Source: Winogradskya consettensis (GTDB lineage Bacteria > Actinomycetota > Actinomycetes > Mycobacteriales > Micromonosporaceae). Taken from it: DNA of 64,000 bases. Of the stretch, positions 40,656 to 51,621 are shown piece after piece. The notes below the pieces were generated by a model. The model was given only the letters and a program-made list of their open reading frames with translations, ran no database searches and was not told the DNA's origin. Each line of letters begins with the position of its first letter. Position 1 is the first letter of the stretch. Made by a program: the position numbers and the translations under genes. The stretch is taken from positions 1 through 64,000 of the forward strand of contig NZ_BOQP01000027.1 in assembly GCF_018332715.1 (NCBI RefSeq). Reading direction: 5' to 3'.

Positions 40656-41612
40656 TCACCCTTCCGCGGTGCCGAGCCCGGTGGGCCCGTTGCCGGTGAC
40701 GGTTGCCGCGGTGGCATCCGCCAGCGCCGGTCGCCGGGGGGTGAATGCCTCCGCGTTGCCCTGCAGGTAGCCGTGGGAGCCGGTCATCGCGTCGGCGATC
40801 ACGCGTTCCTTGCCGGTGATGTCGGAGGCGAGCTCTTCGAGGCCCTTACGGATCTGCTCCACGACGTCATGGGCGTTCTTGCCGTCGAACTTCACCGGTT
40901 TCGGATCGTCGCCGGTGAACGACGCCCCGGACGAGGCCGCCTCCCCGACGATGGTCAGGCCCAGCGCGACCGAGGCGCCGGCTGACGGCCCGGCGGCGGC
41001 GATCGCGAAGATCGACCCGACCACGGTCAGCAGGCACGAGGTCTCTTTGGGGTTGCAGTCGAGCAGCACGTCCAGGGAATCCTGCGCGGCATGGGCCAGC
41101 TCGTCGACACTCCTGCGGGCCTCACGCCACAGGGCGCGCTCGGCCTCCATCGCACCTTTGAGGGCGAGGATCAGGGAGAACTGGTTGGCGGTCACCCCGG
41201 TGAACCGATCCATGAAGTTGGTACGGAAGTTGGTCGCGGCGGGCCCTCGCCAGTCCTCGATGAGGGTGCCGACCCGGGCGAACCCGCCCAGGGCCGGGTT
41301 GACGGTCACCGCGTCGGTGTTGACCTTGTCCTGGCCGGTGCCCTCGTTCAGCGTGCTCGCCGCACTCGCCAGCACCGTGATCGCGGGAGTGAAGACGTCC
41401 GGGTCCGGCATGCCCAAAAACGGGGTGAACATCTCCGCGACCCCGGCGAAGCGTCCCACGGTCCCGTCGACGGCGAGCTGAACCTCGTGGTCACTGCCGC
41501 CGCCGTACCATTTACCGTCGTCTTTTTTGTTGAATCCGCGTTGTTTGAGGTCCATCTCGATGGCGGACGTCTCGATCTTCGCGGCGTGCTCGGCCAGCTG
41601 TTCGTAGCTCAC
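40656..41612 (-). CDS. ESX/WXG-type helical protein
   Basis: 318 residues from GTG 41612, overlapping the upstream stop by four bases. The centre (VGTLIEDWRGPAATNFRTNF, then a long helical stretch with SVDELAHAAQDSLD) has a W-x-G turn between helices like WXG100/ESX substrates. Residues 200-240 are glycine/alanine-rich and hydrophobic. No signal peptide. It is probably a type VII secretion substrate or partner; no EccC ATPase is in the window, so the machinery must lie elsewhere. Confidence 0.65.
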   Translation of the reverse strand: MSYEQLAEHAAKIETSAIEMDLKQRGFNKKDDGKWYGGGSDHEVQLAVDGTVGRFAGVAEMFTPFLGMPDPDVFTPAITVLASAASTLNEGTGQDKVNTDAVTVNPALGGFARVGTLIEDWRGPAATNFRTNFMDRFTGVTANQFSLILALKGAMEAERALWREARRSVDELAHAAQDSLDVLLDCNPKETSCLLTVVGSIFAIAAAGPSAGASVALGLTIVGEAASSGASFTGDDPKPVKFDGKNAHDVVEQIRKGLEELASDITGKERVIADAMTGSHGYLQGNAEAFTPRRPALADATAATVTGNGPTGLGTAEG

Positions 41613-42010
41613 TGCGGTGTCCCGTCCTGCGGGTGCGCGGCTTCCACGGCGGGTTGCAGCTCCTGGAACTTCTTCGCCGCGACGTCGTCGGTCCGGGCGT
41701 ACTCGTCGGCGGCCAGCACCATGGCGTCGCCGGTCAGTTCCAGGTTTTCCGCTGTGGTCCGCAGGATCTCGAAGACCGCGTCCCGGAAGTCGTCGAACGC
41801 CGGTTTCGCGGGGCCGTACGGGCCGCCGAGCTTGCCGTCGCGATAGAAGTTGTGGCCGACACTGTCCGTGAGCAGGAGGTTGCCGGCGGCGAGCCGGAAC
41901 TGCTGTGCGACGGGTTTGAGCTGGTACTGGCCCGCTTCCCACAGGTCGACCAGGTCGGCGCCCAGTTCATCGCCACTGTGCGGCATCGTCGTCTCCCCCG
42001 ACATCGCCAT
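41609..42010 (-). CDS. Small helical ESX-associated protein
   Basis: 133 residues, helical throughout, with ENLELTGDAMVLAADEYARTDDVAA near the C terminus, the pattern of small WXG100-like partners. It starts the four-gene operon 42010-39305. Start ATG 42010 or the internal ATG of MPHSGDEL are both possible. Confidence 0.7.
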   Translation of the reverse strand: MAMSGETTMPHSGDELGADLVDLWEAGQYQLKPVAQQFRLAAGNLLLTDSVGHNFYRDGKLGGPYGPAKPAFDDFRDAVFEILRTTAENLELTGDAMVLAADEYARTDDVAAKKFQELQPAVEAAHPQDGTPQ

Positions 42011-42150: not shown

Positions 42151-42771
42151 TCAGGCCGGACGGGCCGGGCGGGACTGGGTGTCGAGGCCGGCGACGAGCA
42201 GCGTGATGCCCAGGTTGAAGGCCTGTGGCCCGCGCGGGAGGTCGGCGGGGTCGAGGGAGTGCGGGGCGGCGACGACGCCGAGGCTGTCGGCTTGGAGGCG
42301 TTGTTGCTGGTGGAAGGCGTGGCCGACGAGGAAGAGGACCATGGTCTCCGCGGCGAGGCCGGTGGTCTGCGGGTCGAAGCCGCCGGCGCAGATCGCCCGG
42401 GAGAGGCGGTGGGCGAGACCGTCGGCGCCGAGGCCGAGGGCGAGGGTGCTGGAGACGACCTCGGCGCCGTCCTTGTAGGCCAGGAGTGCGTCGTGCAGTG
42501 CTGCGGCCTCGTGACGCACCTGGTCGCGCCAGTCGCCGGTGCCGGGGTCGGCGGGGCGGGCGCTCGCGATGATCTGGTCGGAGACGGCTGCCAGGAGGGC
42601 CTGCTTATTGGGGAAGTGCCAGTAGAGCGCGCTGGGCTGCACGCCGAGGGTGGTGGCCAGGTGCCGCATCGTGAGGTCGGGCAGGCCCTGCTCGTCGAGG
42701 ATCCGCAGGGCGGCGGCCAGTACGTCCTCGCGGCTGTTGCGGGCGTACCCGGCGCTTGAAGGTCTCGGCAC
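42151..42771 (-). CDS. TetR-family repressor, probable BioQ-type biotin regulator
   Basis: 206 residues from GTG 42771. HTH: LTMRHLATTLGVQPSALYWH followed by FPNKQALLA, and a TetR C-terminal domain of the tetracycline-repressor type (HEAAALHDALLAYKDGAEVV). It is divergent from bioY. Two TGAAC-N3-GTTCA boxes, close to the published BioQ box of actinobacteria (TGAAC-N3-GTTAC), plus a long palindrome lie between. Control of biotin uptake is therefore likely, though not proven by the protein sequence alone. Confidence 0.82.
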   Translation of the reverse strand: MPRPSSAGYARNSREDVLAAALRILDEQGLPDLTMRHLATTLGVQPSALYWHFPNKQALLAAVSDQIIASARPADPGTGDWRDQVRHEAAALHDALLAYKDGAEVVSSTLALGLGADGLAHRLSRAICAGGFDPQTTGLAAETMVLFLVGHAFHQQQRLQADSLGVVAAPHSLDPADLPRGPQAFNLGITLLVAGLDTQSRPARPA

Positions 42772-42792
42772 GCCGTCACTATAGTGACGGCG
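42771..42792. promoter_or_regulatory. Perfect 22-bp palindrome at the TetR start
   Basis: CCGTCACTATAGTGACGG forms the core of a perfect 22-bp palindrome that touches the GTG start of the TetR gene. It differs in sequence from the TGAAC boxes next to it, so it is either the autoregulatory site or the site of a second regulator. Confidence 0.7.
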
Positions 42793-42798
42793 GTGTCC

Positions 42799-42826
42799 TG
42801 AACGTTGTTCAGGTGAACGGCGTTCA
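42799..42826. promoter_or_regulatory. Two tandem BioQ-like boxes before bioY
   Basis: TGAAC-GTT-GTTCA (42799-42811) and TGAAC-GGC-GTTCA (42814-42826) are perfect repeats, 15 bp centre to centre. The second runs into the bioY ribosome site AGGAGG, so occupancy would also block translation start. Confidence 0.75.
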
Positions 42827-42838
42827 GGAGGGGTGCGG

Positions 42839-43396
42839 GTGGAGCGGTTCGACACGCGGGATGTGGCGAGGATCGTGGTCTTCGCCGCGATCATGGCTGT
42901 CCTGGGGTTACCGGGTGCGATCACGTTGTTCGGTGGCGCGGTGCCCATCACCCTGCAGTCGATGGGCGCCATGCTGGCCGGTGCTGTGCTGGGGCCGTGG
43001 CGCGGTGCCACCTCGATCGTTGTCTTTCTCGTGCTGACGTTCGCGGGCCTGCCGTTGCTGTCCGGTGGGCGCGGCGGAGCCGGGGTGTTCGTCGGCCCGT
43101 CGGCGGGTTACCTGGCCGGCTGGGTCCTCGGGGCGTTCGTCGTGGGCGTCATCGTGCGGTTCCGGGGCCGGCCGCCGGTGTGGTGGCGGACGGCGTTGGG
43201 CTGCCTCGTCGGTGGGATGGCCGTCGTGTACGCGATCGGCGTCCCGGTCCAGGCCGCTGTCACGCATCTCCCACTGGGCAAGACCGTGCTGTCCGCCCTG
43301 GTTTTCGTGCCGGGGGATCTGCTCAAAGTGGTGTTCGCGACGATCGTCACGATGGCGCTGTGGCGGGCGTACCCGCGGGCTTTCGAGCTGAAGTGA
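42839..43396 (+). CDS. bioY: Biotin transporter substrate-binding subunit BioY
   Basis: 185 residues from GTG 42839, five bases after AGGAGGGG; the earlier GTG at 42833 overlaps that site. Six hydrophobic segments and the BioY marks are present: VFAAIMAVLGLPGAITLFGG, VPITLQSMGAMLAGAVLGP, GLPLLSGGRGGAGVFVGPSAGYL. It is the S component of an ECF transporter, and bioM and bioN downstream supply the ATPase and T subunit. A TTA codon is at 42908. Its stop overlaps the ligase start. Confidence 0.93.
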   Translation: MERFDTRDVARIVVFAAIMAVLGLPGAITLFGGAVPITLQSMGAMLAGAVLGPWRGATSIVVFLVLTFAGLPLLSGGRGGAGVFVGPSAGYLAGWVLGAFVVGVIVRFRGRPPVWWRTALGCLVGGMAVVYAIGVPVQAAVTHLPLGKTVLSALVFVPGDLLKVVFATIVTMALWRAYPRAFELK

Positions 43397-44637
43397 CCGC
43401 GGCCTTGATCTGCGGCGATGGTGAGCTGACCGGGAGCGAGCTGGCTCGCCGGATCGCCGCGACGGATCCGGCCGTCGACGTGCCCGGCCGGGTGGTGCCC
43501 ATCGTGGACTCCGACCGGGTCGCCGCGCTGATCCGCGCGCTGGCCGTCCGCGATGCGGGTGGCGTGCCGCTGATCGGCGACGACCGCTGGAACCCCGCGT
43601 ACTGGGCCGGGTTGCGCGATCGGGTGGAGGCGGCGGCGCCCGTGCCCGAGATGGCGTGGGCCACGTTCACCTCGGGCAGTTCCGGCGCGCCACGGACCGT
43701 TCTGCGTACCGAAAAATCCTGGTCGGAATCTTTCGCAGCCGTGACCCGGCTGACCGGTCTCACCGCCGTGGACGTCGTCTACCTGCCGGCGCCACTGGTC
43801 TCCTCGATGACCGTCTTCTCCGTCGCCCACGCCCGGCACCTCGGTGCCACCGTCCTGCTGCCGCGCACCCACACCGTTTCCGCCGCAGACCTCGGCGTTG
43901 CCACGGTGCTGCACGGTACGCCGTACGCGCTCCGCGACGTGCTCGAACGGATCGAAGGCGGGGCAGCGCACCGGCTACGGGTTGCCCTGATCGGCGGCGC
44001 CCGGCTCGATCCGGACCTGCTCGCGCGCGCCGGCACCGCCGGGATCCGGGTGGTCAGCTATTACGGAGCCGCCGAACTGTCCTTCGTGGCGGTGGACGCG
44101 GACGGGCACGGACTGAGCCCGTTCGACGGAGTTGAGCTGCGCGTCGACCAGGAATCGGTGCTGTGGGTGCGATCCTCGTACGTGGCCGGCGGTTATCTGG
44201 CCGACACCGCAGGCCCGTTGCGACGCGACGCGGACGGCTGGGCGACGGTCGGTGACCTGGCCGCCATGACCGGGGCCGGACGGTTGCGCCTGCTCGGACG
44301 CGATGACGGCGCGATCCTGACGGCGGGCGCGACGGTCATCCCCGAGGACGTCGAGGCGATCCTGCCGCGCGTCGAGGGCATCGCCGACGCGGTGGTGTTC
44401 GCGTTTCCGCACGCCCGCACGGGAGACCTGCTCGCCGCGGTCATCGAGCTCGAACCGGGACATCGGCCCCCGTCGGCCGCGGAACTGAGGGCCAGGACGG
44501 AAGCCCTTCTGACGGGTACGCATCGGCCGCGCCGGTGGTTCTGGACGGACCGGCTCCCGCGTACGCCCACCGGGAAACCGGCCCGTGAGCAGATCCGCCG
44601 CGACGCCCTGGAGGGCCGGGTGTCCCGCATTGTCTGA
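43393..44637 (+). CDS. AMP-binding acyl-CoA ligase-like enzyme in the biotin operon
   Basis: 414 residues from GTG 43393 (GTGA overlap with bioY). Adenylation motifs: TFTSGSSGAPRTV (P-loop), YYGAAELSFV, DGWATVGDLA, and LPRTPTGKPAREQI with the C-terminal catalytic Lys. The enzyme is about 100 residues shorter than typical ligases, missing part of the N-terminal subdomain. It should activate a carboxylic acid as acyl-AMP and pass it to CoA or another thiol. Position inside a biotin operon suggests pimelate or another biotin-related acid, but that is inference. Confidence 0.85.
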   Translation: MTAALICGDGELTGSELARRIAATDPAVDVPGRVVPIVDSDRVAALIRALAVRDAGGVPLIGDDRWNPAYWAGLRDRVEAAAPVPEMAWATFTSGSSGAPRTVLRTEKSWSESFAAVTRLTGLTAVDVVYLPAPLVSSMTVFSVAHARHLGATVLLPRTHTVSAADLGVATVLHGTPYALRDVLERIEGGAAHRLRVALIGGARLDPDLLARAGTAGIRVVSYYGAAELSFVAVDADGHGLSPFDGVELRVDQESVLWVRSSYVAGGYLADTAGPLRRDADGWATVGDLAAMTGAGRLRLLGRDDGAILTAGATVIPEDVEAILPRVEGIADAVVFAFPHARTGDLLAAVIELEPGHRPPSAAELRARTEALLTGTHRPRRWFWTDRLPRTPTGKPAREQIRRDALEGRVSRIV

Positions 44638-45778
44638 GTACCCCGTCATCGTGGCGGCGCGGCGTACCCCGATCGCCGCGTCCGGCGGTGCCCTCGCCGG
44701 CCTCGGCGCTGCCGAACTCGCCACCCCGGTCGTCCGGGCCTGCGTCGACGATGCCGCCCGGGCGACGGGCTCGTCCGGCCCGGTCGGGGACGTGGTGCTG
44801 GGCAACTGCATGGGTCCGGGTGGCAACCTCGCCCGGGTCGCCGCGCTGGGAGCCGGTCTGGGACACGCCGTGCCGGGGATGACCGTCGACCGGCAGTGCG
44901 GCAGCGGCCTGGCGGCGATCATCAGCGCCGCCGAGACGATTCGCGCCGGCGACTCCCGGCTGCGCGTGGCGGGCGGCGTGGAGAGCTGCTCCACCGCACC
45001 CACCCGGGCGATCGGCGGCGTGGTCTACCGCCGGGCACCGTTCACGCCCGCCGGACATCCCGACCCCGACATGGTCCGCGCCGCTCAGGATCTCGCCGTC
45101 CACGACGGGATCAACCGCGACCAGCAGGACGCGTACGCCGCCCGCAGCCACCGCCTGGCGTTGCGTGCCCAGGAGTCCGGCGGGTACGACGCTGAACTCG
45201 TACCCCTCGAAGGCTTCACCACCGACACGAACCCGCGCCGGCGGCTGCCCGCGATGCTCGCGCGTTTCCCGGTGCTGTTCCCGGACGGTGGCACGCTGAC
45301 AGCGGGCAACTCGTGCCGCGACAGCGACGGCGCGGCCGCAGTCGCCATCGTCGCGCCCCACCTGCGGGGGAGTGCACCCGGCCTGGCCGTGCGCGCCACC
45401 GCGACCGTGGGCTGCGATCCGGCTCTGCCCGGCCTCGGCGCGGCCGTCGCGGTGCGCGACCTGTTGGCGCGTAACGGGATCGGCGTCGCGGACCTCGCCG
45501 CGATCGAGATCGTGGAGGCGTTCGCCGCGCAGACCCTGGCATCACTGACCAGGCTGGGACTCGCGGACGGCGACGACATCGACGACCGGGTGTGCGCGGG
45601 CGGCGGCGCCCTCGCGCTGGGTCACCCGTGGGGTGCGAGCGCGGCCGTGAGCGTGGTGCGGCTGTTCACCCGGCTGGTACGCGCGGGCGCGCCGGCCGGC
45701 ACCCTGGGCCTCGCCACCGCCGCGGTCGGCGGAGGACTCGGTGTGGCAGCCCTGTTCGAGGTTGTCCGCCATGACTGA
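44630..45778 (+). CDS. Thiolase-family protein with altered active site
   Basis: 382 residues from TTG 44630 (SEYPVIVAARRTP), overlapping the ligase end. The nucleophile Cys90 (DRQCGSGLAA) and His332 (LGHPWGAS) are present. The NEAF loop reads VEAF (Val295 for Asn) and the CxG loop reads AVG (Ala365 for the second Cys, in LATAAVGGG). Canonical acetyl-CoA acetyltransferases need all four loops, so this protein either has another acyl-transfer or condensation chemistry or is weakened. It follows the ligase, so may act on its acyl-thioester. The bioM start overlaps its stop. Confidence 0.88.
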   Translation: MSEYPVIVAARRTPIAASGGALAGLGAAELATPVVRACVDDAARATGSSGPVGDVVLGNCMGPGGNLARVAALGAGLGHAVPGMTVDRQCGSGLAAIISAAETIRAGDSRLRVAGGVESCSTAPTRAIGGVVYRRAPFTPAGHPDPDMVRAAQDLAVHDGINRDQQDAYAARSHRLALRAQESGGYDAELVPLEGFTTDTNPRRRLPAMLARFPVLFPDGGTLTAGNSCRDSDGAAAVAIVAPHLRGSAPGLAVRATATVGCDPALPGLGAAVAVRDLLARNGIGVADLAAIEIVEAFAAQTLASLTRLGLADGDDIDDRVCAGGGALALGHPWGASAAVSVVRLFTRLVRAGAPAGTLGLATAAVGGGLGVAALFEVVRHD

Positions 45779-46466
45779 CCGCGTCATCGGGTTCGAGCAC
45801 GTCTCGGTGCACTTCGCCCGGCACACCGCGCTGCGTGACGTATCGGTGCGACTGGACCAGCGGCGCATCGCGGTCATCGGGTCCAACGGTTCCGGAAAGT
45901 CGACCTTCGCCCGTACGCTCAACGGTCTGATCGTCGCCTCCGAGGGCGGGATCCGCGTCCACGGCATAGATCCGGCCCGCGAGCCCAAACAGGTGCGCCA
46001 GCGGGTCGGGTTCATCTTCAGCAACCCGGACACCCAGATCATCATGCCGACCGTGGCCGAGGACGTCGCCTTCTCCCTGCGCCGGCGCGGACTGCCCCGG
46101 CAGGAGATCCGCGACCGGGTCGCCGCCGCGCTGGACGACTTCGGCCTCACCGCGGAGGCGGACTCCCCGGTGCACGAGCTGTCGAGCGGGCAGAAGCAAC
46201 TGCTGGCCCTGTGCGCGGTGCTCATCGGCGAGCCGGGCCTGGTCGTGGCCGACGAGCCCACCGCGTACCTGGACGCCGCCAACAGCCGGCGGATCGCGGG
46301 TTTCCTGCTCGACCGGATGCCACAGCAACTGGTCCTGGTCACCCATGATCTGCGGCTGGCCGCCCGCTGCGACGTCGCGCTGCGATTCGAGGGCGGCCGG
46401 CTGGCCGACCACGGCGAACCCGGCCCGGTCATCGCCCGGTACGAGAAGGACCAGGACCAGCCATGA
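45771..46466 (+). CDS. bioM: ECF transporter ATPase BioM
   Basis: 231 residues from ATG 45771. Walker A GSNGSGKST, Q-loop FSNPDTQI, signature LSSGQKQ, Walker B LVVADEPTAYLD and switch His VTHD are all there. It drives biotin uptake with BioN and BioY. Overlaps of 8 bases with the thiolase and 4 with bioN show one tight operon. Confidence 0.93.
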   Translation: MTDRVIGFEHVSVHFARHTALRDVSVRLDQRRIAVIGSNGSGKSTFARTLNGLIVASEGGIRVHGIDPAREPKQVRQRVGFIFSNPDTQIIMPTVAEDVAFSLRRRGLPRQEIRDRVAAALDDFGLTAEADSPVHELSSGQKQLLALCAVLIGEPGLVVADEPTAYLDAANSRRIAGFLLDRMPQQLVLVTHDLRLAARCDVALRFEGGRLADHGEPGPVIARYEKDQDQP

Positions 46467-47059
46467 TCTCGCTCTACCGGCCCGGCGACAGCCTGCTGCA
46501 CCGCATGCCCGCCGGGCCGAAGCTGGTCGTCGTGGCGGGCCTGGCGACGGCGATCTCCCTGCTCCCGGCGAACCCGTTGCTGCTGGCCGCGGTGCTCGTG
46601 GCCGTCGCCGGCTGCTACTTGCAGGCCGGCACCGGGATCGCCGAGGCCGGCCGGCAACTCTGGCGGCTGCGCTGGGTGCTGCTCGTCGTGTCGCTGAGCC
46701 AGGTATTTTTCCTGCCCGTGCTCACCGTGGCCGCCAACGTCATCCGGGTCGGTGCGGTGGTGCTGCTGGCAAACCTGATCACTCTGACCACCCGTACGGA
46801 CAGGCTCATCGACGCCCTGGAACGCGCCCTGCGTCCACTGCGCAGGGTCGGCGTCAACTCGGACCGGGTAGCCCTCATGCTGTCGATGACGATCACCACC
46901 ATCCCCGTCATCGCCGGCTTCGCCGCCCGGATCCGCGAGGCCCAGCGCGCCCGGGGCGTGACGGTCTCCCCGTTCGCGGCCGTCGTACCCCTGCTCGTCA
47001 TGGCCCTCAAACACGCCGACGACCTGGCCGACGCCCTGGTCGCCCGTGGCGCCGACTGA
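46463..47059 (+). CDS. bioN: ECF transporter transmembrane subunit BioN
   Basis: 198 residues, CbiQ/EcfT family. It has four to five hydrophobic segments and the two ATPase-coupling ARG motifs (AQRARGV and ALVARGAD). It ends the operon that starts at bioY. Confidence 0.9.
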   Translation: MISLYRPGDSLLHRMPAGPKLVVVAGLATAISLLPANPLLLAAVLVAVAGCYLQAGTGIAEAGRQLWRLRWVLLVVSLSQVFFLPVLTVAANVIRVGAVVLLANLITLTTRTDRLIDALERALRPLRRVGVNSDRVALMLSMTITTIPVIAGFAARIREAQRARGVTVSPFAAVVPLLVMALKHADDLADALVARGAD

Positions 47060-47139: not shown

Positions 47140-50100
47140 ATGTCGTGGATCTCCGTAGCCGCTGTTGCGGTCGCGCTGGTCGTGCCGGGTCAGGTTCCTG
47201 CGGCGGCGCCGGTGGAGCCCGTGCCCGGTGGGCCCCGGACGGCGGCGGAGGTCTACCGGTATCTGGAGGATCCGCAGCTCACCGGCGAGGGTCAGGAGGA
47301 GCCGCACGCCGACCTGCGGCCATACCCGGATGCCTCCTCCGCGGCCGCTGATGTGACCAGCCACGACGCCGCGAATCCGGAGGTGCGTTCGCTCAACGGC
47401 GATTGGCGGCTGAAGATCTTCGACCGGCCCGATGATGTGCCCGCGGCGTTCCACGACGCCGGGTTCGACGCGAGCAGGTGGCCTGCCGCGCGGGTGCCGC
47501 ACACGTGGCAGTCCGACTTCATCGACCACCCGATGTTCCGCAACATTCCCTCGGAGATCGTCCCGGACGACCCTGCCAAGGTTCCGCACGACGTCAACCC
47601 GACCGGCGCCTACCTTCGTACCTTCGACCTGCCGAAGGACTGGTCCGGTGACCCTGTCTTCCTCCGCTTCGAGGGTGTGACCAGCAACTATCTGGTCTGG
47701 GTGAACGGCGGCTACGTCGGCTACGACCAGGGCGGCTACACCCCGGCCGAGTTCGACGTCACCGAGCGCCTGCACCCGGGACGCAACACGATCGCGGTGC
47801 AGGTGCACCGCTGGGGTTCCGGTGCCTACCTCGAGGACTTCGATCAGTGGCGTTACAGCGGCATCTTCCGCGACGTGTGGCTCTACCGGACCGGGCCGAC
47901 CCGGCTGCGGGACGCGTACCTGACGACTCACGGTGACACTCTGAGCGCCCGGGTGGACGTCGCCGGTGTCGCCGGCAGGTTCACCGTGCGCGGCACCCTG
48001 CGCGACGCGAAGGGCCGGACCGTCACCACCGTCAGCGCGTCGACGGGCACCGGCAGGGTCACGCTCACCGCACCCGTGGCGAACCCGGCACGGTGGAGCG
48101 CCGAGGAGCCGAACCTCTACACGCTGGTGCTGGAACTGCTCGACAGCCGCGGCAGGTCGTTGCACACCACCGCGCAGCCCGTCGGCTTCCGCGACGTCGA
48201 GGTGCGTGACCGGCAGATCCTCGTCGACGGCAAGCGCATCCTGATCAAGGGCACCAACCGCGCGGAGACCGATCCCGACACCGGCCGGCACGTCAGCCGC
48301 GATGCCCAGCGCGACGATGTGTTCCTGATGAAGAAACTGCACTTGAACGCCGTACGGACATCGCATTATCCGTCCGATCCTTATCTTTACGACCTGGCCG
48401 ACCGGCACGGTCTGTGGATCGACGACGAGGTGGACATCGAGACGCACAACCACGAGTCCTGCCCGTCGGTCTGTCTCGCGGACCGCCCGGAATGGCAGGC
48501 CGCTTTCGCCGACCGGTTCCGCGCGATGGTGGAGCGCGACAAGAACCACCCCAGCGTCATCTTCTGGGACACCGGCAACGAGGCCGGGCTCGGCGCCGCG
48601 CACTACGCGATGGCGGCGTGGGCCGACGCGAACGAGCCGACCCGGTTGCTCTATCACCAGTCCAACAGCCCCGACGGCGACGCACCGTTCGCCGACGTCG
48701 ACGGCCCCCGCTATCCGACCCCGGCCCGGCTGGAGAGCCGCACGCTGAGCAGCACCAAACCGATCGTGATGGGGGAGTACGCCCACGCGATGGGCAACGG
48801 GCTGGGCAACTTCGACCAGTTCTGGGCCCTTGCCCGTGAGTATCCGCAGATGCAGGGTGGCTTCATCTGGGACTGGGCCGAACAGAACCTGCGCCAGCCG
48901 CTCGTGGTCACCCCCGACACGGCGAACGGGATCCAGGCCTTCCTGGTCGGCAAGCCCGGCACCACCACCGGCCACCGCGGCAACGCCGTCTCACTGTCCA
49001 GCCTGGACGACTTCGTCGACGTCTTCCGCGACCCGCGCCTCGACCTGACCGGCCCCCTCACCCTCGACGCATGGGTCCAGCCGGGGGAGTGGGCCGGCAG
49101 CTTCCCGATCCTCACCAAGGGGCAGTCGTACGCCCTGCAGATGACCGATCGTGACACGCTGGAATTCAGGGTCGACGGGAAGGCCGTCACCGCGGACGTC
49201 CCCGCCGACTGGTACGGCAGCTGGCACCGCGTCACCGGCGGCTACGACGGCACCACCCTGCACCTGCTGATCGACGGCACCGAACGGGCCACGACACCCC
49301 GCAGCGGCGCGGTCGACCCCGGTCTGTGGGAGGTCAACCTGGGCCACAACGCCGAGACGCAGCAGGACAACGACCTGTGGAGCGTACGTCTCGGCCGCGG
49401 CCTGATCGACGATGCCCGCATCTACGCCAGGGCACTGACCCCGGACGACCTGGCCGCCGACCCGTCCGGTACCGCCGTCCTGGCCCTGAACTTCGACACG
49501 TTCCAGCGTCGTGGCGACTTCCTCAGCCTCGGTATCAGCCTCTCCGGCACCGACGGCCTGGTGGGCTCGGACCGTTACGTGCAGCCCGAGACCGCCGAGA
49601 TGGCCTGGGCGCAGGCGCCGATCCGGTTCACCCGGGACGGCGACATCATCCACGTGCACAACGAGCAGCAGGCCGGCGCCTTCGCGGTCACGCTGCGCTG
49701 GAAGCTCACCGAACAGGACCGTACGCTGCGCAGCGGCAGCCGTAAGGTCCGGCTGGAACCCGGCGCGACCTACGACCTCGACCCGGGTCCGCTCCCGGCG
49801 AATCCCGGCGACCGGGAGCGTTTCCTGAGCGTCGAAGCGGCCGGCGACACCGATCACGCGTGGGCGCGTCGCGGCTGGATCGTCGGGCACGACCAGTTCG
49901 CTGTCGGCGGTCACGCGGTGCCCGGCATCCTGCCGCTTCCCGTCGCGGGGGCCCCGGCGCTGTCCGGCAGCGGCGACCGGATCACGGTGTCCGGCAAGGA
50001 CTTCACCTACCGGTTCGACGCGGGCCTGCTCACCTCGATGCGCGCGACGGGTCGTGAGTTGCTGCACGGCACCCCGGCCCTGGACGTCTACCGGCCACCG

Positions 50101-51621
50101 ACGAGCAACGAGACGTACGACTGGGGCACCGACGACCGCCGCATCTGGCACGAGACCGGTCTGGACGCCCTGCGCACCACGGTCACCGGCGTCACGACCC
50201 GCACCGAGGCCGACGCCGTGGTGGTCGAGGTCCGCAGCACCGCGGCGGGAACCGGGATCTCGTTCGGCCAGACGATGCGCTACCGCATCGACAAACGGGG
50301 CACGATCACCCTCGCGCACGACGTCGTGCCCTCCGGACCGGGGATCACCTCCCTGCCGTACCTGCCGCGGGTCGGGATCTCGTTGCAGGTGCCCGATTCC
50401 CTGCACCGGTTCGCCTACTACGGCCGGGGCCCGCAGGAGAGCTACAACGACCGGCGCAGCGGCGCCCCGATGGGGGTCTACACCAGCACCGTCGACGACC
50501 AGTACGTGCGCTACTCGCGGCCCCAGGCCAACGGCAACCACACCGACACCCGCTGGGCCGCCCTCACCGACGGCCGCTCAGGGCTGCTCGTCGGCGGCAC
50601 TCAGGACGTCAGCGTCACCGCCTACGACAACCTCGACCGCGCCGAGTACGACCATCAGCTCCCACTCGTGCGCAACCGCGGCTGGGTCACCCTGCACGCC
50701 GAGGCCGGCGAGACGGGCATGGGCGAGACACCGAACTCGGTCCTCGCGCCCTACCGGCTCTCCCCGACCCAGCCCTACCACCAGGAACTGGTTCTGCGCC
50801 CCCTCACCCGCGCGGAGGCGGCGGCCGGTGGCGTGCCCGATTCGGACGTCCCGGCGCCCTGCCCACCCGCGGTCTCCGTGCAGGCGCCGGCGCAGATCCA
50901 GCCCGCAACCCCCGTCGAGGTCCAGGTCCCGGTCCGGTCACGCTGCGCGCCTGGTCTGCGGGATGCCTCCGTACGCCTGGGAGCGCCCGAAGGCTGGACG
51001 GTCTCCCCGGAATCGGTCTCGCTGGGCGCCGTAACCGACCGCGAAACGGCCACTTTCACCGTCACCGCTCCGGCCGGCACCGACATCGGAAAGTACCCGC
51101 TGACCGCCACGGCCGTCACCACTACCCCGACCGGATTCCGCTCCACCACCACCGCGACCACGACGGTCGCCGTGCCGCTGCCCGCCGGCTGGTCGTGGCT
51201 CAGCGACCGGCCCTTCACCCCGGTCACGAACGGCTGGGGCCCGGTCGAGAAGGACCGCAGCAACGGCGAACAGGGCGCCACCGACGGCAACGCCCTCACC
51301 ATCGCCGGAACCGTCTACGACAAGGGCCTCGGCGCCCACGCGACCTCGTCGATCGAAGTGCCCCTGGGCGGCTCCTGCACCCGGTTCCGCGCCGACGTCG
51401 GCGTCGACGACGAGACCGGCAGCGGTGGCACGGTCGATTTCGAGATCTGGCTGGACGGCGAGCGCCGGTTCGCGTCCGGCACCCGCACCGGCACGGACCC
51501 GGCCCAGCCCCTCGACCTCGACGTATCCGGCGCCACCACCATGAACCTCAGGGTCACCGACGCCGGTGACGGCAACGGCAACGACCACGGCGACTGGGCG
51601 TACGCCCGCCTCGACTGCTGA
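47140..51621 (+). CDS. Secreted GH2 beta-galactosidase-like enzyme with LamG, NEW3 and NPCBM domains
   Basis: 1493 residues. A short signal peptide precedes a LacZ-type core: jelly roll (SLNGDWRLKIF, WVNGGYVGYDQGG), immunoglobulin-like part and TIM barrel with acid/base Glu481 (DTGNEAGLG) and nucleophile Glu546 (GEYAHAMGN). A LamG-like insert (about 592-787, GPLTLDAWVQPG, YDGTTLHLLIDG) splits the barrel from the C-terminal LacZ domains. After these come a NEW3 domain (about 1250-1345) and an NPCBM carbohydrate-binding domain (about 1350-1493, DKGLGAHATSSIEV). It probably removes beta-galactosyl residues from polysaccharide outside the cell; the exact substrate is open. Confidence 0.92.
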   Translation: MSWISVAAVAVALVVPGQVPAAAPVEPVPGGPRTAAEVYRYLEDPQLTGEGQEEPHADLRPYPDASSAAADVTSHDAANPEVRSLNGDWRLKIFDRPDDVPAAFHDAGFDASRWPAARVPHTWQSDFIDHPMFRNIPSEIVPDDPAKVPHDVNPTGAYLRTFDLPKDWSGDPVFLRFEGVTSNYLVWVNGGYVGYDQGGYTPAEFDVTERLHPGRNTIAVQVHRWGSGAYLEDFDQWRYSGIFRDVWLYRTGPTRLRDAYLTTHGDTLSARVDVAGVAGRFTVRGTLRDAKGRTVTTVSASTGTGRVTLTAPVANPARWSAEEPNLYTLVLELLDSRGRSLHTTAQPVGFRDVEVRDRQILVDGKRILIKGTNRAETDPDTGRHVSRDAQRDDVFLMKKLHLNAVRTSHYPSDPYLYDLADRHGLWIDDEVDIETHNHESCPSVCLADRPEWQAAFADRFRAMVERDKNHPSVIFWDTGNEAGLGAAHYAMAAWADANEPTRLLYHQSNSPDGDAPFADVDGPRYPTPARLESRTLSSTKPIVMGEYAHAMGNGLGNFDQFWALAREYPQMQGGFIWDWAEQNLRQPLVVTPDTANGIQAFLVGKPGTTTGHRGNAVSLSSLDDFVDVFRDPRLDLTGPLTLDAWVQPGEWAGSFPILTKGQSYALQMTDRDTLEFRVDGKAVTADVPADWYGSWHRVTGGYDGTTLHLLIDGTERATTPRSGAVDPGLWEVNLGHNAETQQDNDLWSVRLGRGLIDDARIYARALTPDDLAADPSGTAVLALNFDTFQRRGDFLSLGISLSGTDGLVGSDRYVQPETAEMAWAQAPIRFTRDGDIIHVHNEQQAGAFAVTLRWKLTEQDRTLRSGSRKVRLEPGATYDLDPGPLPANPGDRERFLSVEAAGDTDHAWARRGWIVGHDQFAVGGHAVPGILPLPVAGAPALSGSGDRITVSGKDFTYRFDAGLLTSMRATGRELLHGTPALDVYRPPTSNETYDWGTDDRRIWHETGLDALRTTVTGVTTRTEADAVVVEVRSTAAGTGISFGQTMRYRIDKRGTITLAHDVVPSGPGITSLPYLPRVGISLQVPDSLHRFAYYGRGPQESYNDRRSGAPMGVYTSTVDDQYVRYSRPQANGNHTDTRWAALTDGRSGLLVGGTQDVSVTAYDNLDRAEYDHQLPLVRNRGWVTLHAEAGETGMGETPNSVLAPYRLSPTQPYHQELVLRPLTRAEAAAGGVPDSDVPAPCPPAVSVQAPAQIQPATPVEVQVPVRSRCAPGLRDASVRLGAPEGWTVSPESVSLGAVTDRETATFTVTAPAGTDIGKYPLTATAVTTTPTGFRSTTTATTTVAVPLPAGWSWLSDRPFTPVTNGWGPVEKDRSNGEQGATDGNALTIAGTVYDKGLGAHATSSIEVPLGGSCTRFRADVGVDDETGSGGTVDFEIWLDGERRFASGTRTGTDPAQPLDLDVSGATTMNLRVTDAGDGNGNDHGDWAYARLDC

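What the first reader, a model, noticed from the sequence alone, without database searches (positions are those of the whole stretch)
42771..47059. Biotin-uptake operon carrying an acyl-CoA ligase and a thiolase with altered catalytic loops
bioY, ligase, thiolase, bioM and bioN overlap by 4 to 9 bases and sit behind two BioQ-like boxes. The ligase is about 100 residues short. The thiolase keeps Cys90 and His332 but has Val for the NEAF Asn and Ala365 for the second Cys of CxG. A matched pair lodged between transporter subunits suggests an undescribed step on biotin, a biotin vitamer or a pimelate-like precursor, such as activation and acyl transfer or chain condensation.
Basis: partly seen in the sequence, partly recalled or inferred. 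Interest (0 to 1): 0.8.

Follow-up and report, generated by a model that had tools for sequence, protein, structure and literature searches.

The report
Biotin-uptake operon with acyl-activating enzyme pair
Some bacteria carry, inside the operon that imports the vitamin biotin, a conserved pair of enzymes of unknown purpose that look able to activate and extend or transfer an acid, and in this bacterial family the pair turns up mainly in species that lack genes to make biotin.

Summary
In detail: bioY, ligase, thiolase, bioM and bioN overlap by 4-8 bases behind two exact BioQ-type boxes. The pair is homologous to the biotin-repressed yhfT-yhfS genes of Bacillus and Staphylococcus, whose role in biotin metabolism is unknown. 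Found here: (1) the pair thiolases form one clade (100/100) that keeps the nucleophilic Cys and the His but has lost the second catalytic Cys (0 of 34 against 26 of 26 ordinary thiolases); the Asn-to-Val change marks one subclade only. (2) Of 121 genomes in the window's family 11 have the pair, all with bioY; 10 of the 11, the window's included, lack bioA and bioB, so pimelate supply cannot be the general role. (3) Elsewhere an enoyl-reductase-like protein with a thioesterase (six loci), a ketoreductase (five Bacillaceae) or a MaoC hydratase (one) sits beside it: together a two-carbon elongation set. Best guess (0.35): salvage of a side-chain-shortened biotin by activation and C2 extension without the lost cysteine. 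Main rival (0.25): biotin-sparing fatty-acid use, backed by reported fatty-acid activity of YhfT. No substrate is shown.

The parts
42151..42771 (-). Divergent TetR-family regulator (probable GTG start at 42771, about 206 aa)
   Evidence: PF00440 and PF02909; divergent homologues beside bioY in Micromonospora (68%) and Mycetocola (49%)
42799..42811 (.). BioQ-type box TGAACGTTGTTCA
   Evidence: predicted BioQ site TGAAC-N3-GTTCA as quoted in a passage of PMC3398298
42814..42826 (.). BioQ-type box TGAACGGCGTTCA, just upstream of the bioY ribosome-binding sequence
42756..42785 (+). sigma-70-like promoter match (TTGAAG, 18 nt, TATAGT)
   Evidence: 1 found, 0.2 expected; a consensus match only
42833..43396 (+). 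bioY, biotin-binding S component of an ECF transporter (GTG start)
   Evidence: PF02632, 118.8 bits, cut-off 25; the only BioY match found in the genome
43393..44637 (+). Acyl-activating (ANL) ligase, YhfT-like, 414 aa, short N terminus, ATP-binding loop and Lys395 kept
   Evidence: PF00501, PF13193; best NCBIfam model PRK07638, 129.6 bits, below its cut-off of 518; motifs; AF2 pLDDT 89.1 and ANL fold
44630..45778 (+). Thiolase-fold enzyme, YhfS-like, Cys90 and His332 kept, Val295 and Ala365 in place of Asn and Cys (TTG start)
   Evidence: AF2 pLDDT 95.0 and thiolase fold
45771..46466 (+). bioM, ECF transporter ATPase
   Evidence: PF00005; nearest NCBIfam TIGR04520, 175 bits, below its cut-off of 315
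46463..47059 (+). bioN, ECF transporter T component
   Evidence: PF02361 CbiQ

Best explanation
The pair is a biotin-regulated salvage module attached to the biotin importer. Shown: gene order, BioQ-type boxes, ligase motifs kept, a thiolase fold with nucleophilic Cys and His but no second catalytic Cys in the members examined, and, in the window's family, enrichment in genomes lacking bioA and bioB. Inferred: in biotin shortage the ligase adenylates a carboxylic acid that comes in beside biotin and loads it on CoA or ACP. The thiolase-like enzyme takes the acyl group on Cys90 and joins it to a two-carbon unit. Because the proton-handling Cys is gone, the donor is more likely a malonyl than an acetyl thioester. 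Ketoreductase, hydratase, enoyl reductase and thioesterase, encoded beside the pair in some lineages and supplied by fatty-acid synthesis in others, finish the cycle, so R-COOH becomes R-CH2CH2-COOH. For a cell that cannot make biotin the product worth having is biotin, so the proposed substrate is biotin shortened by two carbons (bisnorbiotin).
For: One clade of pair thiolases, 100/100; CxG Cys 0 of 34 against 26 of 26; Gly there in 8 of 8 Bacillaceae thiolases that have the ligase beside them. Ligase beside thiolase in 28 of 30 best relatives and bioY, bioM or bioN in the locus in 26 of 30; BioY and BioN in 0 of 50 ordinary-thiolase loci. Pair with bioB absent: 10 of 11 against 11 of 110 genomes, p 2.8e-8; among bioY genomes 10 of 11 against 8 of 29, p 7e-4, both uncorrected for kinship. 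Ligase directly before the thiolase in 11 of 11 of these genomes. Own genome: no bioB or bioA over cut-off, no bioW, biotin-protein ligase present. MECR-like reductase and 4HBT thioesterase together in 6 of 37 loci; SDR directly after the thiolase in five Bacillaceae genomes; MaoC after it in Microvirga; bioB, or bioB with bioD, beside the cassette in G064 and Streptomyces albireticuli. The extra enzymes suit reduction and release rather than beta-oxidation.
Against: No substrate is known; bisnorbiotin is an inference. B. subtilis YhfT is reported to adenylate fatty acids (passage in the review PMC10988940). The window operon itself carries no ketoreductase, hydratase, enoyl reductase or thioesterase. 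Fourteen of 32 pair genomes have bioB, so the pair is not confined to auxotrophs; 7 of the 18 without bioB still have a BioD-like match over cut-off, the own genome included. Eight bioY genomes of the family without bioB lack the pair. The window clade also lost the NEAF Asn, which weakens any condensation, decarboxylative ones included. The reductase and thioesterase links fall within one clade of the thiolase tree, so they may be one old association. The bioB association rests on few independent events.
Confidence: 0.35

Rival explanations
1. Biotin-sparing lipid supply: when biotin is short, acetyl-CoA carboxylase fails, so the cell activates external or recycled fatty acids and lengthens or channels them. 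The pair is a lipid-supply response that shares the biotin switch.
For: YhfT of B. subtilis is reported to form acyl-AMP from fatty acids, to pass the acyl group to ACP and to aid surfactin synthesis (review passage). A ligase, ketoreductase, hydratase, enoyl reductase and thioesterase set is equally a fatty-acid elongation set. Biotin control is reported in Staphylococcus and Bacillus.
Against: Elongation without malonyl-CoA would need acetyl-CoA deprotonation, normally done by the Cys that the clade has lost (mechanism recalled); elongation with malonyl-CoA would not spare biotin. It does not explain why bioY accompanies the pair in 11 of 11 genomes of the family.
Confidence: 0.25
2. Acyl transfer without C-C bond formation: the ligase makes a biotinyl or vitamer thioester and the Cys-His thiolase relative moves it to another carrier, as a trap for imported biotin or towards a biotin derivative.
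For: The Cys and His needed for acyl transfer are kept in 35 of 35 tree members; the window clade has lost both other catalytic residues.
Against: Biotin-protein ligase is present in 32 of 32 pair genomes, so no extra route to biotinylation is needed; 17 of 35 members keep the Asn; it does not explain reductase and dehydratase neighbours.
Confidence: 0.12
3. Pimelate supply: the pair makes or activates a pimeloyl precursor for de novo biotin synthesis.
For: Many pair genomes have bioB (14 of 32); biotin-controlled expression and BioQ-type boxes.
Against: Ten of 11 pair genomes in the family, the window's included, lack bioA and bioB over cut-off, so pimelate could not become biotin by the known route; B. 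subtilis already has bioW (control).
Confidence: 0.1
4. Side-chain shortening: beta-oxidative trimming of longer biotin analogues, or biotin breakdown.
For: A CoA-ligase-like enzyme and a thiolase are the two ends of beta-oxidation.
Against: Thiolysis also needs the lost Cys (thiolase mechanism, recalled); no acyl-CoA dehydrogenase was recognised among the chosen neighbours scanned, while a reductase and a thioesterase are there in six loci; biotin-repressed expression makes breakdown unlikely.
Confidence: 0.08

Closest known systems
yhfT-yhfS, co-regulated with bioY in the BirA regulon of Bacillus subtilis and Staphylococcus aureus
   Same: An acyl-activating ligase and a thiolase under biotin-responsive control together with bioY; best NCBIfam models PRK07638 and PRK06690 (that these names stand for YhfT and YhfS is recalled); Bacillaceae copies also lack the CxG Cys
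   Different: Here bioY, the pair, bioM and bioN are one operon (in S. aureus bioY and yhfT-yhfS are described as separate regulated units), the boxes are of TetR/BioQ type, the ligase is shorter, NEAF is VEAF, and both proteins score below the curated cut-offs
bioYMN biotin ECF transporter operon of Corynebacterium glutamicum (PMC3398298)
   Same: bioY, bioM and bioN together; predicted BioQ sites TGAAC-N3-GTTCA upstream of bio genes in corynebacteria
   Different: No ligase-thiolase pair in the passages seen; the word thiolase does not occur in that paper's main text
Biosynthetic and degradative thiolases (PDB 3ss6, 1ulq, 5cbq, Zoogloea type)
   Same: Fold (TM about 0.87-0.88 by query length), nucleophilic Cys, GHP His
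   Different: Second catalytic Cys absent in the clade; NEAF Asn absent in the window's subclade
BioZ (KAS III-like condensing enzyme of alphaproteobacterial biotin synthesis; recalled)
   Same: Thiolase-superfamily condensation serving biotin
   Different: BioZ feeds de novo synthesis; this pair occurs in genomes without bioA and bioB, and it comes with its own ligase

Membership tests
Biotin ECF transporter BioMNY | BioY, ATPase and T-component genes together | tested here: met
   PF02632, PF00005, PF02361; bioY, bioM and bioN in one overlapping run with the pair between bioY and bioM
BioQ regulon of Actinomycetota | TGAAC-N3-GTTCA box upstream of a bio gene | tested here: met
   Two exact boxes; exact box before bioY in 7 of 7 Nocardiaceae pair operons; exact plus one-mismatch boxes in Micromonospora L046, Mycetocola L047 and G088
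BioQ regulon of Actinomycetota | Cognate BioQ repressor responding to biotin | not testable with these tools
   Divergent TetR found; binding and ligand need an experiment; a paralogous TetR with its own tandem boxes sits at C17
YhfT (PRK07638) curated equivalog | Score over the curated cut-off of 518 bits | tested here: not met
   129.6 bits, but the best of 82 models
YhfS (PRK06690) curated equivalog | Score over the curated cut-off of 498 bits | tested here: not met
   272.4 bits, the best of 33 models, hardly ahead of the general thiolase model TIGR01930 at 271.4
bioY-yhfT-yhfS class in the broad sense | Ligase and thiolase adjacent, linked to bioY, thiolase in one clade | tested here: met
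Acetyl-CoA C-acyltransferase family TIGR01930 (thiolases) | Score over cut-off; thiolase fold | tested here: met
   271.4 bits against 240.55; fold
Catalytically classical thiolase | Cys-Asn-His-Cys catalytic set | tested here: not met
   Cys90 and His332 present, Asn replaced by Val295, second Cys by Ala365
ANL acyl-activating enzymes | ATP-binding loop, YGxxE, GD, catalytic Lys near the C terminus | tested here: met
   fold
De novo biotin synthesis gene set | bioA and bioB in the same genome | tested here: not met
   Own genome: best bioA-model match 307 bits under the cut-off of 405; best bioB-model match 33 bits under the cut-off of 225
De novo biotin synthesis gene set | bioD in the same genome | tested here: inconclusive
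   One BioD-like match of 105.5 bits over the cut-off of 83.3, with no other bio gene recognised beside it

The most novel reading that the evidence does not exclude
A previously undescribed vitamin-salvage pathway: bacteria, in the window's family mostly ones without bioA and bioB, rebuild biotin from its two-carbon-shortened breakdown product (bisnorbiotin) with a dedicated ligase and a thiolase-family condensing enzyme that has dropped the classical acid-base cysteine, helped by a ketoreductase, hydratase, MECR-like reductase and thioesterase.
Probability: 0.25. Interest if true: 0.87.

Novelty: new variant of a known kind. Interest (0 to 1): 0.62.

Why it matters
yhfT-yhfS belongs to the biotin regulon of model bacteria, but the papers found here give it no role in biotin metabolism (listings and passages); YhfT is tied to surfactin only. 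The catalytic signature of the thiolase, its enrichment in genomes of one family without bioA and bioB, and the extra elongation enzymes turn a vague 'putative fatty acid ligase operon' into a small set of testable reactions. If the salvage reading is right, growth on bisnorbiotin would be a new way to meet a biotin requirement, and calls of biotin auxotrophy from genomes would need another test.

Tried and rejected
Pimelate supply as the general role: rejected for the window because bioA and bioB are missing. Pair as a replacement for biotin-protein ligase: rejected, that ligase is in 32 of 32 pair genomes. Short ligase as a dead enzyme: rejected, catalytic motifs are kept, and a curated short acyl-CoA ligase model of 362 positions (PRK07824) exists. 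Val substitution as the family signature: rejected, it is a subclade trait. BioQ boxes as exclusively biotin-related: weakened, the other tandem pair lies before a TetR gene and a siderophore-interacting-protein gene. A lone BioD-like gene as proof of synthesis: not accepted.

Rows dropped or read with care: L058, L066, L067 and L070 were left out of the tree (broken or partial frames); L075 has no letter at the CxG column there, hence 34 and not 35; only 26 of the 50 ordinary-thiolase loci were put in the tree. L035 was left out of the ligase comparison, and only loci present in both alignments were used. In one search a weak generic ATPase match in L064 was not counted as bioM. In one search, 18 genomes are counted as without bioB because nothing is over the cut-off; one of them (G146) has a partial bioB-like match of 99.8 bits. 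One search returned 12 loci in 11 of 36 Bacillaceae genomes; 4 of them (L149-L152) have thiolases without the ligase and were not counted as pair; the motif was printed for one of these (L150), which keeps the Cys. My own gene caller put shadow ORFs in several loci; for those I used tblastn, annotated genes or ORF lists.

Literature not seen: Rodionov 2002 (PMC187538, not held). Statements about BioZ, bisnorbiotin as a natural breakdown product, the thiolase mechanism and the equation of PRK07638 and PRK06690 with YhfT and YhfS are recalled. PMC12642757 holds none of the terms asked for.
Full report
1. What is there. The window is part of a 10.6-Mb, 112-contig genome rated 100% complete. Five genes run on the + strand: bioY 42833-43396, an acyl-activating ligase 43393-44637, a thiolase relative 44630-45778, bioM 45771-46466 and bioN 46463-47059, with overlaps of 4, 8, 8 and 4 nt. 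A divergent TetR gene (42771-42151) faces bioY, and two exact TGAAC-N3-GTTCA boxes lie between them. This is the predicted BioQ site as quoted in a passage of PMC3398298. The genome holds 8 such sites and the reversed control pattern none. No terminator-like site was found between 42700 and 47200.

2. It is a known but unexplained kind of gene pair. The best NCBIfam models are PRK07638 for the ligase (129.6 bits, cut-off 518) and PRK06690 for the thiolase (272.4 bits, cut-off 498; the general model TIGR01930 gives 271.4). Both scores lie below the curated cut-offs, so the proteins are homologues, not certified members. That these models are the YhfT and YhfS proteins is recalled. A search with PRK06690 in 36 Bacillaceae genomes gave 12 loci in 11 genomes at E up to 1e-90; in 8 of the 12 (L141-L148) a YhfT-like ligase lies next to the thiolase, in 4 it does not. 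Passages in PMC7235819, PMC6391492 and PMC11089781 describe yhfT-yhfS as repressed by BirA with biotin together with bioY, as a separate unit in S. aureus and as 'downstream genes' of bioY in the review, with putative annotations only. A passage in the review PMC10988940 says that B. subtilis YhfT yields acyl-adenylates but no CoA thioester, passes the acyl group to ACP, and that its loss lowers surfactin.

3. How widely the arrangement holds. A scan of named genomes gave 80 loci out of a larger, capped set of candidates. In the 30 best, L046-L075, the ligase lies next to the thiolase in 28; the two exceptions are cut by contig ends (L049, L070). At least one of bioY, bioM or bioN is in the locus in 26 of 30, the exceptions being L058, L063, L064 and L070; L063, L066 and L070 are contigs under 6 kb. 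In the other 50 loci, ordinary thiolases, BioY and BioN appear in none. The five-gene order of the window is seen in 12 of the 30 (L046, L047, L048, L050, L052-L056, L061, L067, L073) and in Nonomuraea gerenzanensis L032. Other orders are bioM-bioN-bioY-ligase-thiolase (Azospirillum L033, Sinorhizobium L035, Microvirga L036, Shinella L068 and L072, Streptomyces albireticuli L074, Marinimicrobia L059) and pairs facing bioN-bioM-bioY or bioY-bioN-bioM (Arthrobacter L062, L065, L071; Geodermatophilaceae L051, L069; L075). Ligase and thiolase diverge in step: Mantel r 0.90 over 25 loci.

4. The thiolase. A tree of 35 pair thiolases and 26 ordinary ones (26 of the 50 loci) puts the pair on one side of a branch with support 100/100. 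The nucleophilic Cys and the GHP His are kept in all 61. The CxG Cys is kept in 26 of 26 ordinary thiolases and 0 of 34 pair thiolases (A 20, G 8, S 6; one row has no letter). The NEAF Asn is kept in 26 of 26 ordinary ones and in 17 of 35 pair ones; V (8) marks the clade of the window, its relatives and Mycetocola, Cellulosimicrobium, Nonomuraea and Microbispora; T (8) the Nocardiaceae and G033; M (2) Microvirga and a Rhodobacteraceae. Eight of 8 Bacillaceae thiolases with the ligase beside them have Gly at CxG (L141-L148; L148 is the L057 copy again). The AF2 model (pLDDT 95.0) matches solved thiolases at TM about 0.87-0.88. In the thiolase mechanism as recalled, that Cys moves the proton of acetyl-CoA in both directions, so neither ordinary condensation nor thiolysis is expected to be efficient; a decarboxylative donor or plain acyl transfer would not need it. 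That is an inference.

5. The ligase. Rows with intact frames keep the ATP-binding loop, a YG(A/S)(A/S/T)E motif and the final Gly-Lys; the GD motif is kept in all of them but Kocuria L058 (HD). The L035 row is frame-broken. The model folds as an ANL enzyme (pLDDT 89.1). Six of the seven Nocardiaceae operons show a second ligase in the operon after bioN in both scans and the seventh (L056) a shorter reading of it.

6. Regulation. Exact boxes lie before bioY in 7 of 7 Nocardiaceae pair operons; Micromonospora L046, Mycetocola L047 and G088 (L138) have two or three exact or one-mismatch boxes. None stands before the operon in Nonomuraea gerenzanensis L032, Microbispora L073, the Arthrobacter and Geodermatophilaceae loci, S. 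albireticuli L074 or G064 L140; in L048 and L060 the upstream region is not held.

7. Association with loss of biotin synthesis. In the same 121 genomes of the window's family, drawn evenly by the tool, the pair-type thiolase is in 11 (E below 1e-77; the next best match is 9e-52), and in 11 of 11 the ligase lies directly before it, with bioM and bioN after it in 10 (all but G064, where they stand before the pair). bioB is over cut-off in 100, bioA over cut-off in 99 and bioY in 40. All 11 pair genomes have bioY, within 2.5 kb of the thiolase in 10 and on another contig in G033. Ten of the 11 lack bioB, against 11 of the other 110: Fisher p 2.8e-8; among bioY genomes 10 of 11 against 8 of 29, p 7e-4 (one of the bioB-less genomes, G110, follows by subtraction from the call's lists). 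The same ten have no bioA over cut-off. These tests ignore kinship: six of the ten belong to one genus (g19). Contrasts within genera do exist: the window's genome has the pair and no bioB, while the other seven sampled members of its genus have bioB and no pair; in genus g25 two pair genomes lack bioB and the third sampled member has bioB without the pair. Across 32 pair genomes from several phyla, 14 have bioB over cut-off and 18 do not, one of the 18 with a partial match; 7 of these 18 have a BioD-like match over cut-off; all 32 have biotin-protein ligase; bioW is in 0 of 20 examined. The BioD-like gene of the own genome stands without other recognised bio genes.

8. Extra enzymes beside the pair. 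A thioesterase of the 4HBT type and a zinc-ADH-like reductase occur together in 6 of 37 loci and in no other of them: Rhizobium L034 (where no bioMNY is in the locus), Sinorhizobium L035, Shinella L068 and L072, S. albireticuli L074 and G064 L140 (weak 29-30% reductase matches in L073 not counted). The nearest characterised PDB relatives of the Sinorhizobium reductase are mitochondrial trans-2-enoyl thioester reductases, after an uncharacterised putative quinone reductase. A short-chain reductase directly follows the thiolase in 5 of the 8 Bacillaceae loci; FabG-type models are among its best matches, below their cut-offs. A MaoC-type hydratase follows the thiolase in Microvirga. In G064, a member of the window's family, bioB, thioesterase, bioM, bioN, bioY, ligase, thiolase and reductase run in one direction. 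In S. albireticuli bioB, bioD and the reductase stand divergently from thioesterase, bioM, bioN, bioY, ligase and thiolase. The six thioesterase-reductase loci fall in one clade of the thiolase tree (96/94, together with Arthrobacter, where neither was found), so they may count as one old link.

9. Reading. An activating enzyme, a condensing-type enzyme, a ketoreductase, a hydratase, an enoyl reductase and a thioesterase are the parts of one two-carbon elongation round; no single locus seen here holds all of them. A cell without bioA and bioB can gain biotin only from biotin itself or from something that needs no ring synthesis. Bisnorbiotin is recalled as a breakdown product with a side chain shorter by exactly two carbons. 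Hence the proposed salvage. The main rival is that the pair serves fatty-acid supply when acetyl-CoA carboxylase is starved of biotin; the YhfT data favour it and the lost Cys speaks against it. Plain acyl transfer fits the window's stripped active site best of all but leaves the neighbours unexplained. No call here shows a substrate or a product.

10. Verdict. The conserved loss of the second cysteine, the enrichment in genomes of the family without bioA and bioB, and the elongation neighbours were not met in the listings and passages of the ten paper searches; the library holds open-licence papers only.

Noticed in passing
L140:6843-14118 (G064): One-direction run of bioB, thioesterase, bioM, bioN, bioY, ligase, thiolase and reductase in a genome that has a second bioB elsewhere.
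   Followed up: partly
L074:1469-10170: Streptomyces albireticuli: a bioB and bioD set with the reductase, divergent from thioesterase-bioMNY-ligase-thiolase; the genome has two bioB and two bioD matches over cut-off.
   Followed up: partly
L052:11485-12888, L053:11397-12806, L055:11397-12785: Nocardiaceae operons add a second, full-length ligase after bioN, while the first ligase is shortened to 370-382 aa.
   Followed up: partly
L126:9948-10607 (own genome C17:22948-23607): Another tandem pair of TGAAC-N3-GTTCA boxes before a TetR paralogue (33% identical) and a siderophore-interacting FAD protein, facing an HTH gene and an MFS gene.
   Followed up: partly
L136:8687-10267 (own genome C43): BioD-like domain in a long proline-rich open frame, without other recognised bio genes around it; in G088 (L137) the BioD-like gene also stands among unrelated genes.
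   Followed up: no
L035:3358-4855: The ligase frame beside the thiolase on pSymB of Sinorhizobium meliloti Ak57 is interrupted and not annotated as a gene.
   Followed up: no
window 47140-51621: Large secreted glycoside-hydrolase-like protein (beta-galactosidase type, judged by eye) starting about 80 nt after bioN without a recognised terminator between.
   Followed up: no
window 40656-42010: Genes on the - strand beyond the TetR gene that look like WXG100/ESX-type proteins (judged by eye).
   Followed up: no
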